This document shows positions 38,572 to 45,519 of a stretch of DNA of 64,000 bases, piece after piece. The notes below the pieces were generated by a model, which saw only the letters and a list, made by a program, of their open reading frames with translations, had not been told where the DNA came from and did not search any database. Source of the DNA: an uncultured Acidimicrobiia bacterium. Lineage in GTDB: Bacteria; Actinomycetota; Acidimicrobiia; Spongiisociales; Spongiisociaceae. A program made the translations under genes and the position numbers. How positions within the stretch are numbered: position 1 is the stretch's first letter; every line of letters starts with the position of its first letter. Location: the NCBI GenBank assembly GCA_958295745.1, contig OY282370.1:1896548-1960547 (forward strand). Reading direction: 5' to 3'.

Positions 38572-39474
38572 ATGGAAGAGGACCGCCGCCCGATCGATTA
38601 CATCGCCCTCACCAAGGCCACCTACGACCGGCTGGGTTATCAGCCGTACCGCTGGGCGGTCAGCGAGCAACCTCCCCCCATGGCCGTCCTCGACAAGCCC
38701 TTGTCCGAGGCCCGTCTCGGCCTGATCGCCTCCGGCGGGATCTACAGGCACGGGCAGGTGGCCTTCACCCATCGGGATGACATAACCCACCGGGAGATAC
38801 CCGCCGATACGGACACCGGCGACCTGCGGGTGACCCATTTCGCCTTCAACCTGGCAGCCGCCCGCCTGGATCCCAACGTGATCTTCCCTATCGACACGCT
38901 GCGCACCCTCGCCGCCGAGGGGGTGGTGGGCGGGTTGGCGCCTTATGCGTTGACCTTCATGGGGGGGATCTACTCGCAGCGCCGCCTAGCCGACCAGCTG
39001 ATCCCGGTACTGGTCGATCGGATCCTGGATCTCGAGGTGGATGCGGTGCTGCTGGTGCCCGTCTGACCGATTTGCCACCAGTCAGTTGGACTGTTGAGCA
39101 GGGCGATCGAGGCCAAAGGGGTTCCAACCGTCTCGATGACCAGCGCTTGGTCGATAACCGCCTCGGTCAGCCCGCCGCGGGCCGCCTTCACCGATTTTCC
39201 CCTCGGGCATACCTGCGGTCCGCCGGGCCGGCCCGCCCTGCAGCGATCCATAATGGAGGACGCCCTGAGGCTGTTCGAGACCCTGGACGAGCCGGGCGTC
39301 ATCGAGGACCTCGGCTATTCGTGGGCCGCGGAATGGAAGGAGGCGGCCCGCCGGCCGGTGGACCACCGCACCCTCCGCCATGACAGACCCCAATATCAGA
39401 ACCGAGAAGACGAACAGGCCGCGGTGCGCATCCACGGTCAGGTCATAGCCTGCGGAGGCGCGCGCCCCGAATAA
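38572..39474 (+). CDS. Glycine/sarcosine/D-proline reductase B-like protein, probable selenoprotein
   Basis: Read as 300 codons with TGA 39064-39066 decoded as selenocysteine (residue 165). Upstream of it the protein has the family features Ser-Ser/Ala-Ser-Gly-Gly-Ile-Tyr and Thr-His-Phe, and the run up to Leu-Leu-Val-Pro-Val. Immediately after the TGA the same frame continues with Pro-Ile-Cys-His-Gln-Ser-Val-Gly-Leu and Ala-Lys-Gly-Val-Pro-Thr-Val, and on for 135 codons to TAA. In relatives I recall from the selenoprotein B family, the TGA position is a Cys of a Cys-x2-Cys motif, so here it would be Sec-x2-Cys. A hairpin follows at SECIS distance. Function in aerobes is unknown; a redox role is likely. 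The alternative is a nonsense mutation. Confidence 0.75.
39064..39096 (+). promoter_or_regulatory. Candidate bacterial SECIS element
   Basis: Nine nt after the UGA, a hairpin starts: outer CA/TG (39076-39077 with 39095-39096), one C-U mismatch, inner CAGTC/GACTG (39079-39083 with 39089-39093), apical loop AGTTG. The loop carries G at its second position, 18 nt after the UGA, matching what is expected of bacterial SECIS elements bound by SelB. Confidence 0.55.
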
Positions 39475-39533: not shown

Positions 39534-39794
39534 ATGGCGGAGATCGTGATGTACACCACGCCGTGGTGCGGATGGTGCAAGCGCGCCAAGAGCCTGCTGG
39601 CCCGGCACGGCTACGAAGACATCACCGAGATCGACGTGGAAGAGCAGGGCGACGACGCCTGGACGAACCTGGAGCGGCGCACCGGCCAGAAGAGCGTTCC
39701 CCAGATTTTCATAGGGGATCATCATGTGGGCGGCTTCCCTGACCTGGACCGGCTGATAAAGGAAGGCCGCCTCGACGCCCTGGCCGGAGCCTGA
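39534..39794 (+). CDS. grxC: Glutaredoxin (GrxC type)
   Basis: An 86-residue thioredoxin-fold protein with the active site Cys-Gly-Trp-Cys at residues about 11-14, the cis-Pro segment Ser-Val-Pro-Gln-Ile-Phe-Ile and the C-terminal Gly-Gly-Phe-Pro-Asp-Leu. These are glutaredoxin 3 features, although Actinobacteria with mycothiol use it as a mycoredoxin-like protein. ATG 39534 lies 60 bp after the selenoprotein stop on the same strand, with GGGCGAG upstream. Its position suggests that it may reduce the Sec-x2-Cys pair of the upstream protein; this is an inference. Confidence 0.9.
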   Translation: MAEIVMYTTPWCGWCKRAKSLLARHGYEDITEIDVEEQGDDAWTNLERRTGQKSVPQIFIGDHHVGGFPDLDRLIKEGRLDALAGA

Positions 39795-39893: not shown

Positions 39894-40793
39894 ATGGTTT
39901 CAGCTTTTTTCGATCCGGCCTGCTGGCGGGAGGTCGAGGGATTCGAGTTCACGGATATCACCTACCACCGGGCCGTCGATCAGGGAACGGTACGGGTGGC
40001 CTTCGACCGCCCCGAGGTGCGCAACGCTTTCCGGCCCCGGACGGTGGACGAGCTCTACACGGCGCTCGACCACGCCCGGCAATGGTCCGATGTGGGCGCC
40101 GTGCTGCTCACCGGCAACGGCCCCTCTCCCAAGGACGGCGGCTGGGCGTTCTGCTCGGGCGGGGACCAGCGGATACGCGGCAAGGACGGGTACCGATACG
40201 CGGAGGGCGAGGGCGCCGGGAGCATGGACGCCGCCAAGCTCGGCCGGCTCCATGTCATCGAGGTCCAGCGCCTGATCCGGTTCATGCCCAAGGTCGTCAT
40301 CGCGGTGGTACCCGGCTGGGCGGTGGGCGGGGGCCACAGCCTTCATGTGGTGTGCGACCTGACCCTGGCCTCGCGGGAGCACGCCGTCTTCAAGCAGACC
40401 GACTCCGATGTGGCCTCCTTCGACGCAGGTTACGGCTCTGCCTATCTGTCCAGGCAGGTCGGCCAGAAACGGGCCCGGGAGATATTCTTCCTGGGGGCCG
40501 ACTACTCCGCCGAGGAAGCCTACGAGATGGGCATGGTGAACCTGGTGGCGCCCCATGCCGAGCTGGAGGCGGCCGCGCTGGAGTGGGCCCGGCAGATCAA
40601 CTCCAAGAGCCCCATGTCGCAGCGGATGCTCAAGTTCGCCTTCAACCTGATAGACGACGGCCTGGTGGGCCAGCAGGTCTTCGCCGCGGAGGCCACCCGC
40701 CTCGGCTACATGACCGAGGAGGCGCAAGAGGGTCGGGACGCCTTCGTCGATAAACGCCCGAAGGACTTCTCCCGTTTCCCCTGGTACTACTGA
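39894..40793 (+). CDS. menB: 1,4-dihydroxy-2-naphthoyl-CoA synthase
   Basis: A crotonase-fold enzyme with Phe-Asp-Arg-Pro-Glu-Val-Arg-Asn-Ala-Phe, the MenB-specific Phe-Cys-Ser-Gly-Gly-Asp-Gln motif, Ala-Val-Gly-Gly-Gly-His-Ser-Leu, the catalytic Asp in Thr-Asp-Ser-Asp-Val-Ala-Ser-Phe-Asp and the C-terminal Phe-Pro-Trp-Tyr-Tyr. It closes the second ring in menaquinone synthesis from o-succinylbenzoyl-CoA. Length 299 matches mycobacterial MenB. AGGAGG precedes ATG 39894, and a TACAGT -10 lies at 39858-39863. No other men genes are near. Confidence 0.95.
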   Translation: MVSAFFDPACWREVEGFEFTDITYHRAVDQGTVRVAFDRPEVRNAFRPRTVDELYTALDHARQWSDVGAVLLTGNGPSPKDGGWAFCSGGDQRIRGKDGYRYAEGEGAGSMDAAKLGRLHVIEVQRLIRFMPKVVIAVVPGWAVGGGHSLHVVCDLTLASREHAVFKQTDSDVASFDAGYGSAYLSRQVGQKRAREIFFLGADYSAEEAYEMGMVNLVAPHAELEAAALEWARQINSKSPMSQRMLKFAFNLIDDGLVGQQVFAAEATRLGYMTEEAQEGRDAFVDKRPKDFSRFPWYY

Positions 40794-41296: not shown

Positions 41297-42460
41297 GTGT
41301 CACAGGGCACGGTCAGTCACATCACTTCGCCGGCCGAACGGGAGCGGCGTTACAACGCTCTACGGGAGGAGATGTCGGCTAACGGGATAGAGGCATTGGT
41401 CATATGCAGCCGCGGCGATGAGTTCGTACGGGGTCGCGTCCAGTACGTGAGCGACATCTTCCAGTGGGCCGGACGAGGATTCGTGGTGCTCCCGCTGAAG
41501 GGTGAGGCCGTGTTCATCGTCGATCCCCTGTGGGGCCTCGGATACGCCATGATGGGCGGCTGGCTCGATGACTACCGCATGCCTCCCAACGCCGGGGCCG
41601 AGATCGGCAATATCCTGGGTGATCTGGGGCTTTCCAATTCTTCGGTGGGCGTGGTCGGGCTGGCCGACATCACCGCGGTGGCCGACTTCGAGGACATGAA
41701 GGCCGCGCAGCCCGGCGTCGACTGGCAGGACGCCACGGATCTCTTCGACGACGTGCGCGCCATCAAGAGTGCGGAGGAGATCGAGGCCACCCGCGAGACC
41801 GGACGGATCATGCGGAGGGTCTTCTCGGCGCTCGAAGCCGAGATCCGGCCCGGCGTCCAGGAGATAGACGTGCTGGCCGAGGCCCATCGGCTGGCCCGCC
41901 AGCTCGGTTGCATGGAGGGGATAGCCCTCATGGGCCGGGCGCCCTTCAGGTCGTTCACCCCGGGCACCAGAGGCGTGATCGAAGAGGACGACGTGATGGT
42001 GGTCGACCTCGAATGGGGCGGCCCTTCCGGGTATTGGGTCGAGGTCAGGCGGGTCTACAGCTTCCGTCCGCCCAACGACGCCCAGCGCAGATTCTGGGAG
42101 ACCAGGGTGGAATCCTTCGCCGCATGCGTGGACGCGATGAAAGCGGGGGAGTCCTCGGAGACGATTCTCGCCGCCCGCGACCGGGTGTATGCCGCGCACG
42201 GCCAAAACGCAGATGGTGTGATCTCCTACACCGCCCACGGAATCGGCGTGGACTCGCTCGAACCGCCGTGGGTGCCCGGCAAGGAGCGGATCATGCAGGA
42301 AGGCATGATGATCAACCTCCACCCCGCCATCGCGTTCGCAGACCCCGAAGTGGGGGCCGCGCTGGGTGGTATCTCGATCGCCGACAACGTGTTGGTGACG
42401 GCGTCGGGCGGCGAGCGGATCACGGACCAGGTCGACGAATGGATCGTGCTCGACGCCTGA
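41297..42460 (+). CDS. Creatinase-like M24 family protein (copy A)
   Basis: The 387-residue protein has the two-domain creatinase/prolidase architecture: an N-terminal domain to about residue 150 and a C-terminal pita-bread domain. The metal-ligand positions of M24 peptidases are altered: the Asp pair is Asp...Glu (Val-Asp-Leu-Glu-Trp, Trp-Val-Glu-Val-Arg), the usual Glu-Pro reads His-Pro (Ile-Asn-Leu-His-Pro), and the last Glu is Ala (Ile-Ala-Asp-Asn). The His of Ala-His-Gly-Ile-Gly is kept. This pattern fits metal-free creatinase-type hydrolases of C-N bonds rather than aminopeptidases. GTG 41297 has GGAGG upstream; a TAGTCT -10 lies at 41261. The real substrate is unknown. Confidence 0.75.
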   Translation: MSQGTVSHITSPAERERRYNALREEMSANGIEALVICSRGDEFVRGRVQYVSDIFQWAGRGFVVLPLKGEAVFIVDPLWGLGYAMMGGWLDDYRMPPNAGAEIGNILGDLGLSNSSVGVVGLADITAVADFEDMKAAQPGVDWQDATDLFDDVRAIKSAEEIEATRETGRIMRRVFSALEAEIRPGVQEIDVLAEAHRLARQLGCMEGIALMGRAPFRSFTPGTRGVIEEDDVMVVDLEWGGPSGYWVEVRRVYSFRPPNDAQRRFWETRVESFAACVDAMKAGESSETILAARDRVYAAHGQNADGVISYTAHGIGVDSLEPPWVPGKERIMQEGMMINLHPAIAFADPEVGAALGGISIADNVLVTASGGERITDQVDEWIVLDA

Positions 42461-43678: not shown

Positions 43679-44359
43679 ATGCATGATCCTTTCTACGACC
43701 TGTTCCCGCTCCGCGAGGATCCCAAGATCGAATCCGGGAAGACGGCCCTGCTCACCATCGACATGCAGTATCTGGACGCCCACAGGGACGGCTGGGTGGG
43801 GCGGGTCGCCAAGGCGGCCGGCCTAGAGGATGCTCTCGAGCCGAGGTGGTGCGCCATCGACGCCTCCCTGCCGAAGATCAGGGCGGTCCAGGATGCGTTT
43901 CGGGCGGCGGGCCAGGAAGTGATCCACGTCAATGTGGCCTACCGTACCGATGACGGCCGGGACGCCGGTCTGGCTTTCATGCCGTCGGCCGACCTCCAGC
44001 CGGTGGAGAAGGACGAGCGGGACGACGACCTCCTCCCCGAGGTCGACCGCCAGGGTGACGAGATGGTCTTCTCCAAGACCTCGTCCAGCGCCTTCAGCTC
44101 CACGGATATCGAAATGGTGCTGCGCCGGATGCACATCGAACATCTGGTCGTCACCGGGATCGTCACCGAAGGATGCGTGGAGCTGACCGCCCGCGACGCC
44201 GCCGACCGCGGGTTCAGGGTGACCCTGGTAGAGGACGCCTGTTCTGCTTCCACTCCGGAGGCGCACGACGACGCCATCCAGCGCATGACCGACGGAGGGT
44301 TCATAGCGGCCCGGAGCGCGGCAGATGTAATAGCCGAGGTAAAGGAGATGTCGGCATGA
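43679..44359 (+). CDS. Cysteine hydrolase of the isochorismatase family
   Basis: The catalytic triad can be read directly: Asp in Leu-Thr-Ile-Asp-Met-Gln, Lys in Phe-Ser-Lys-Thr and Cys in Thr-Glu-Gly-Cys-Val-Glu-Leu-Thr-Ala-Arg-Asp. Isochorismatase-fold hydrolases with Cys include nicotinamidase, N-carbamoylsarcosine amidohydrolase and ureidoacrylate hydrolase, all of which attack amide or ureido C-N bonds. Lying between two creatinase-like genes, a role analogous to N-carbamoylsarcosine amidohydrolase is attractive but unproven. AGGAGG lies 11 nt before ATG 43679, and TAGAGT at 43622 is a possible -10. The stop overlaps the second M24 gene. Confidence 0.82.
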   Translation: MHDPFYDLFPLREDPKIESGKTALLTIDMQYLDAHRDGWVGRVAKAAGLEDALEPRWCAIDASLPKIRAVQDAFRAAGQEVIHVNVAYRTDDGRDAGLAFMPSADLQPVEKDERDDDLLPEVDRQGDEMVFSKTSSSAFSSTDIEMVLRRMHIEHLVVTGIVTEGCVELTARDAADRGFRVTLVEDACSASTPEAHDDAIQRMTDGGFIAARSAADVIAEVKEMSA

Positions 44360-45519
44360 CCGTAGGGAGGCTCAGCCATCTATCCAGCCCGGAGGAGCGG
44401 GAGCGCCGCCACCGGGCCCTGCGCGAGGCCATGGACGGCGCCGGCATCGATGTGCTCGTGGTTTGCAGCCGCGGCGACGAGTTCATGCGGGGCCGGGTCC
44501 AGTACGTCAGCGACATCTTCCAGTGGGCGGGTTGGGGCATAGTCGTCCTGCCCGCCTCCGGAGAACCGACCTTCATCTCCGATCCGCTCTGGGGGTTGGG
44601 GCGTCCCATGCTGATCGACTTCATACAGGACCTTCGCTCGACGCAGAACCCGGGTCGGGAGATATGCGGCATCGTTCACGATCACGGATACGCCGGCGGC
44701 ACGGTGGGGGTGGTCGGGCTGGCCGACATCGTCCCGGCCGCTCACTATCGGCAGATGAAAGAAGCGGGCCCCGACCTCACCTTCGTCGACGCCACCGATC
44801 TGTTCGACGATGTGCGGATGATCAAGAGCGAGGAGGAAATCGGCCATCTCTACCAGACTTCCTCCATCCTCAAGCGGGTGTTCAAGGCTCTCGAGGCCGA
44901 GATCCGGCCGGGGGTTTCCGAGCTGGACGTCCTCGGCGAGGCCCACCGCCTGGTCCGGCAGCACGGATGTCTGGACGGGATAGCCCAGATGGCGCGCACG
45001 CCTTTCACCACCTACACCTTCGGGACCTACGGGGTGATCGAAGAGGACGATGTGATCGCCATCGACCTGGAGTGGGGAGGGCCGGGGGGATACTGGGTGG
45101 AGCTGCGCAGGGTCTTCAGCTTCCGGCCCCCCTCGGACGCCCAGCGCCGCTTCTGGGATTCGCGGGTGGAGTCGGTGGAGGCGTGCGTCGACGCCATGCG
45201 GGTCGGCGCCTCGTCCGACGATGTGCTGACGGCCATGAACAGGGTCTACGCCAAGTACGGCCAGACCGCCGAGGGGGTCGTCAACTACACCGCTCACGGC
45301 ATAGGGTTGGATTCCCTGGAGCCGCCCTGGGTGCCCGGCAAGGAGCGCGTGATGGAAGAGAACATGGTGATCAACCTGCATCCCCAGATCAGGTTCGAAG
45401 ACGCCGATCTGGCCGGGGAGGTGAGCGGAATCTGCGTTTCCGACAACGTGCTGGTGACCGCCGACGGCCCGGTTCGGATGACCGATCAGGTCGACGAATG
45501 GATCCTCTTAGATGGGTAG
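44356..45519 (+). CDS. Creatinase-like M24 family protein (copy B)
   Basis: A clear paralogue of the protein at 41.3 kb, with identical stretches such as Cys-Ser-Arg-Gly-Asp-Glu-Phe and Gln-Tyr-Val-Ser-Asp-Ile-Phe-Gln-Trp-Ala, and the same loss of M24 metal ligands (Ile-Asn-Leu-His-Pro; final Glu replaced by Ser in Val-Ser-Asp-Asn). Divergence is concentrated around residues 75-125, where substrate-specific loops would lie, so the two could act on different compounds or form a heterodimer. ATG 44356 overlaps the hydrolase stop with GGAG upstream. Its last codons (Leu-Asp-Gly-stop) lie inside the left inverted repeat of a MITE, which has replaced the original end. Confidence 0.75.
   Translation: MTVGRLSHLSSPEERERRHRALREAMDGAGIDVLVVCSRGDEFMRGRVQYVSDIFQWAGWGIVVLPASGEPTFISDPLWGLGRPMLIDFIQDLRSTQNPGREICGIVHDHGYAGGTVGVVGLADIVPAAHYRQMKEAGPDLTFVDATDLFDDVRMIKSEEEIGHLYQTSSILKRVFKALEAEIRPGVSELDVLGEAHRLVRQHGCLDGIAQMARTPFTTYTFGTYGVIEEDDVIAIDLEWGGPGGYWVELRRVFSFRPPSDAQRRFWDSRVESVEACVDAMRVGASSDDVLTAMNRVYAKYGQTAEGVVNYTAHGIGLDSLEPPWVPGKERVMEENMVINLHPQIRFEDADLAGEVSGICVSDNVLVTADGPVRMTDQVDEWILLDG

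What the first reader, a model, noticed from the sequence alone, without database searches (positions are those of the whole stretch)
38572..39474. Probable new selenoprotein: in-frame TGA at a Cys-x2-Cys position with a SECIS-like hairpin
Seen: a 164-codon frame runs into TGA 39064-39066 and then continues without a stop for 135 codons in the same frame, and both halves belong to one recognisable family (glycine/sarcosine/D-proline reductase B-like). The residue after the next two is Cys, giving Sec-Pro-Ile-Cys. Nine nt after TGA there is a hairpin with a 5-nt loop bearing G at position two. Known: members of this family contain Sec or Cys at the redox motif. A glutaredoxin gene follows. The protein occurs here without the partner subunits of the clostridial reductases, so it may define a different redox reaction.
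Basis: partly seen in the sequence, partly recalled or inferred. Interest (0 to 1): 0.85.

Follow-up and report, generated by a model that had tools for sequence, protein, structure and literature searches.

The report
Stand-alone PrdB-like selenoprotein in Acidimicrobiia
The gene does read a TGA "stop" as the rare amino acid selenocysteine, but it belongs to a widespread selenoprotein family related to a bacterial proline-reductase subunit and reported since 2005; what remains open is which reaction it carries out in species that lack the usual partner enzyme.

Summary
Window 38572-39474 (+) is one 300-codon gene with an in-frame TGA at 39064-39066, read as selenocysteine (Sec-Pro-Ile-Cys). 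A hairpin after the TGA (39079-39093) meets the published bacterial SECIS rules and shows compensatory base changes in 59 distinct sequences. The genome has selA, selB, tRNA-Sec (UCA) and a selD with its own Sec-TGA. All 73 fetched loci (Acidimicrobiia, Gammaproteobacteria, Binatota, Myxococcota, Chloroflexota-labelled) keep the TGA, and both halves evolve under similar purifying selection. It is not a new selenoprotein family: PrdB-like UxxC selenoproteins were reported from the Sargasso Sea (2005) and Global Ocean Sampling data (2008). It is not D-proline reductase PrdB proper (140.6 bits against a cut-off of 300; no PrdA beside it). Own finding: 8 of 17 genomes carrying this subfamily, all at least 95% complete, have no GrdE/PrdA-type gene at all, so the protein probably works without that partner, as a selenol-thiol reductase of unknown substrate. 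The neighbouring glutaredoxin is not conserved and says little about function. The genome also carries a Grd-type operon and a second GrdE/GrdB-Sec pair elsewhere. Verdict: a real but ordinary selenoprotein, with one open functional question.

The parts
38572..39474 (+). PrdB-like (PF07355) selenoprotein gene, 300 residues with Sec at 165, stop TAA
39064..39066 (+). in-frame TGA = Sec165 of the UPIC (UxxC) motif
   Evidence: TGA kept in all 73 fetched loci
39073..39075 (+). codon of Cys168, likely resolving Cys of UxxC; invariant in alignment A2
39079..39093 (+). bacterial SECIS upper stem-loop (stem 39079-39083/39089-39093, loop AGTTG 39084-39088)
   Evidence: covariation; published bSECIS rules
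39894..40793 (+). enoyl-CoA hydratase/isomerase family gene, next gene downstream of the orthologue in the 10 closest loci (no functional link shown)
39534..39794 (+). glutaredoxin gene; not found near any of 43 homologous loci, so not part of a conserved unit

Best explanation
The gene encodes a cytosolic, PrdB-like selenoprotein. Shown by sequence: the UGA is decoded as selenocysteine, directed by a SECIS hairpin 12 nt downstream and by the genome's SelA/SelB/tRNA-Sec/SelD. Inferred: Sec165, placed just before a helix with Cys168 in its first turn, acts as the reducing selenolate; after reaction with a substrate it forms a Se-S bond with Cys168, which a thiol system reduces again. Because near-complete genomes with the same protein have no pyruvoyl-type GrdE/PrdA subunit, it most likely works without that partner, on a small molecule not yet identified, rather than as D-proline, glycine, sarcosine or betaine reductase.
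For: sel genes: selA, selB, tRNA-Sec UCA, selD with its own TGA in SPGGG-U-ACKLG. TGA in all 73 fetched loci; 92 of 296 class genomes have a family match and nearly every copy holds a TGA. SECIS covariation, and all four published bSECIS constraints met. Purifying selection on both sides of the TGA (pN/pS 0.22-0.33 before, 0.30-0.35 after, window against six relatives). Family: TIGR04483 E 5e-41, PF07355 above cut-off. 86 of 92 family-bearing genomes have selA, against 199 of 296 overall above the cut-off; two of the six without selA carry Ala in place of Sec. Model pLDDT 94, Sec165 immediately before helix 166-181. No PF09338 gene in 8 of 17 genomes with this subfamily. No conserved partner gene across lineages.
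Against: No experiment shows Sec insertion or activity here. The own genome does hold two GrdE-type genes, so interaction with one of them cannot be excluded in this organism. Four draft genomes have the TGA form but no selA was found, presumably gaps. Substrate and reductant are guesses; no solved structure is close.
Confidence: 0.85

Rival explanations
1. It is a subunit of a D-proline-reductase- or glycine-reductase-type complex that borrows a pyruvoyl GrdE/PrdA subunit encoded elsewhere in the genome.
For: Homology to PrdB; two GrdE-type genes in the own genome, one in most of the related genus g2.
Against: Each GrdE-type gene of the own genome has its own GrdB selenoprotein next to it; 8 near-complete genomes with this subfamily have no PF09338 gene; the PrdB equivalog cut-off is failed by a wide margin.
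Confidence: 0.12
2. The TGA is a true stop or sequencing error, and the downstream frame is a remnant or separate gene.
For: A 135-codon open frame can arise in GC-rich DNA; the fold energy of the hairpin alone is unremarkable.
Against: TGA conserved in all fetched homologues from several phyla, covarying hairpin, purifying selection after the TGA, complete sel set.
Confidence: 0.01
3. The protein works as a pair with the adjacent glutaredoxin in a dedicated redox operon.
For: Glutaredoxin gene starting 59 nt downstream on the same strand.
Against: No glutaredoxin similar to it near any of 43 homologous loci; in 8 of the 10 closest loci the next gene, an enoyl-CoA hydratase, starts right at the end of the selenoprotein gene.
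Confidence: 0.06

Closest known systems
PrdB-like UxxC selenoproteins of marine metagenomes (Sargasso Sea, PMC1088965; Global Ocean Sampling, PMC2398784)
   Same: PF07355-type protein, Sec in UxxC, abundant in marine bacteria; by description the same kind
   Different: Those reports list counts and motif and assign the proline-reductase function by name; sequences of those sets were not compared here, and the absence of the pyruvoyl subunit was not mentioned in the passages read
D-proline reductase subunit PrdB (TIGR04483)
   Same: Sec-x-x-Cys, homologous over residues 35-253
   Different: 140.6 bits against cut-off 300; no PrdA beside it; extra C-terminal tail with a TxRHDTPQYQ-type motif
Glycine/sarcosine/betaine reductase selenoprotein B (GrdB/GrdF/GrdH; TIGR01918)
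   Same: homologous core, Sec at the corresponding place
   Different: lacks the N-terminal about 200 residues of GrdB; UPIC instead of the UGTGT motif of this genome's own GrdB paralogues; 51.1 bits against cut-off 65.45

Membership tests
bacterial selenoproteins | conserved in-frame UGA in a protein family | tested here: met
   73 of 73 fetched loci
bacterial selenoproteins | bSECIS: 3-9 nt loop, 4-16 bp stem, G in the first two loop positions, 16-37 nt from UGA to loop, MFE at most -7.5 | tested here: met
   loop 5, stem 5, A-G-U, 17 nt, -15.5 kcal/mol for 39061-39110 (rules); covariation
bacterial selenoproteins | selA, selB, selC, selD in the genome | tested here: met
bacterial selenoproteins | Sec shown in the protein | not testable with these tools
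   needs mass spectrometry or 75Se labelling
PF07355 (GRDB) superfamily | score above Pfam gathering cut-off | tested here: met
   34.2 bits against 22
D-proline reductase PrdB (TIGR04483 equivalog) | score above equivalog cut-off 300 | tested here: not met
   140.6 bits; 0 of 296 class genomes reach it
D-proline reductase | PrdA pyruvoyl subunit in the same locus | tested here: not met
   the only PF09338 genes of the genome lie about 177 kb and 630 kb away; no such gene near the homologous loci examined
GrdB family (TIGR01918 subfamily) | score above cut-off 65.45 and full length of about 431 residues | tested here: not met
   51.1 bits, best stretch covers model positions 261-421 only

The most novel reading that the evidence does not exclude
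A partner-independent selenoenzyme lineage derived from the PrdB/GrdB fold, widespread in Acidimicrobiia and found in several other phyla, that catalyses a selenol-dependent reduction different from the pyruvoyl-dependent amino-acid reductases.
Probability: 0.5. Interest if true: 0.5.

Novelty: new member of a known kind. Interest (0 to 1): 0.3.

Why it matters
Standard gene calling splits this gene at the TGA, and the closest named family model would suggest 'proline reductase', a function its genomes do not support. If the protein works without a pyruvoyl subunit, it is a widespread selenoenzyme whose reaction is unknown, and one that can be tested in vitro.

Tried and rejected
Rfam scan found no family at the hairpin; the only weak hit (ar7, below its gathering score) lies elsewhere and is treated as chance. 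PDB sequence searches found no convincing relative. Fold searches gave no match above the common alpha/beta background (best VIA-align Z 8.2 to microcystinase C, 13% identity, tied with LacI-type folds), so no function was drawn from fold. Gene neighbourhood gave no cross-lineage partner: a thiolase upstream in a few loci and methyltransferase/AAA genes in others are lineage-specific.

Full report
Observation. The frame 38572-39474 (+) holds one TGA at 39064-39066 and ends at TAA. The N-terminal and C-terminal parts match the same family model, TIGR04483 (PrdB), on their own. Orthologues begin at the same place, so the start at 38572 is plausible.

Decoding. The genome G000 (3.31 Mb, 96.9% complete) has selA at C1:1991686 directly followed by selB at C1:1993026, a tRNA-Sec with anticodon UCA at C1:1732553, and selD at C1:842510-843433 (-), which itself carries an in-frame TGA in SPGGG-U-ACKLG (that this is the usual Sec position of SelD is my own knowledge). 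Sec decoding in this organism is therefore expected.

Conservation. All 73 fetched loci (one is the window itself, and some are the same species drawn from two collections) keep TGA at this column, in contexts such as LVPV-U-PVCHQSV (window subfamily), VPG-U-PMCHRSV and TPV-U-PLCTRTV. In 296 genomes of the class, 92 have a family match and nearly all copies hold a TGA. Of the 92, 86 have a strong selA match (read off by hand); 199 of all 296 exceed the selA cut-off. The six without selA are G290, G234, G174 and G188 (TGA form; drafts) and G158 and G194, whose copies have Ala in place of Sec. One Cys form (PHC-PVCHQS) occurs in G227. Against six relatives, pN/pS is 0.22-0.33 before the TGA and 0.30-0.35 after it.

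SECIS. The stem 39079-39083/39089-39093 with loop AGTTG lies 12 nt after the TGA. In 59 distinct sequences 4 of 6 stem pairs show changes on both sides, 96% of cells pair, and the covariation score is 0.401 against 0.161 in shuffles and at most 0.082 in slid registers. The clearest case is the pair at columns 19/27: mostly T-A or T-G when the codon is Ser (TCN), A-T when it is Thr (ACN), with the partner at a third codon position. The loop has GU at positions 2-3 in nearly all. All four constraints of the published bacterial model are met (PMC13188914).

What it is. PF07355 is passed (34.2 bits, cut-off 22). The PrdB equivalog is not (140.6 against 300) and neither is TIGR01918 (51.1 against 65.45). 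In a tree, the window sits in a fully supported clade of 20 close relatives inside a larger PrdB-like group; Gammaproteobacteria and Binatota/Myxococcota members branch outside it, and the genome's own two GrdB paralogues are far away, on long branches. The AlphaFold2 model is confident (pLDDT 94.2) and puts Sec165 between strand 158-162 and helix 166-181, with Cys168 in the first turn, a placement that suits a selenol-thiol redox pair (inference).

Partners. The glutaredoxin at 39534-39794 has no counterpart near any of 43 homologous loci; the downstream enoyl-CoA hydratase is conserved in the 10 closest loci, and in 8 of them it starts right at the end of the selenoprotein gene. Farther lineages share no neighbour. 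PF09338 (GrdE/PrdA type) is absent from 17 of 26 genomes with PrdB-like selenoproteins, including 8 of the 17 with the window's subfamily; those eight are 95-99% complete and include G137 of the same family, whose orthologue is 70% identical. The own genome has two PF09338 genes, each beside a GrdB-type selenoprotein of its own.

What is known. Proline reductase PrdB with UxxC was the third most abundant known selenoprotein family in the Sargasso Sea data (42 genes; PMC1088965) and had 235 Sec and 110 Cys members in the Global Ocean Sampling data (PMC2398784). A 2026 review lists D-proline reductase as TIGR04483, UxxC (PMC13188914). So the selenoprotein kind is known.

Verdict. A real selenoprotein, correctly spotted, of a known kind; the reaction of this subfamily is the open question.

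Noticed in passing
L095 (G000:C1:2565028-2570104): A Grd-type operon in the same Acidimicrobiia genome: GrdE-like, GrdB with Sec (ATST-U-GTGTRCGA), GrdC beta (581.9 bits, above cut-off 450) and GrdA with an in-frame TGA.
   Followed up: partly
L096:7424-10111 (G000:C1:2110423-2113110, minus strand): A second GrdE/GrdB-Sec pair without GrdC beside it, among amidohydrolase-like and transporter-like reading frames; substrate unknown.
   Followed up: partly
L098 and L099 (genomes G158, G194): PrdB-like copies with Ala instead of Sec (APMC) in two draft genomes where no selA was found, as if the site was lost together with Sec decoding.
   Followed up: partly
window 41297-42460 and 44173-45519: Two similar creatinase/prolidase-type genes (Peptidase_M24 with Creatinase_N) flank an oxidoreductase-like frame and an isochorismatase-type gene.
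   Followed up: no
L095:5029-6378: The GrdE-like protein of the Grd-type operon reads VYALYKNPTYMHQNNP where its paralogue in L096 reads AIACMRELTYTVQNHA; if that Cys is the pyruvoyl precursor, the first copy lacks it. Alignment to known GrdE was not done.
   Followed up: no
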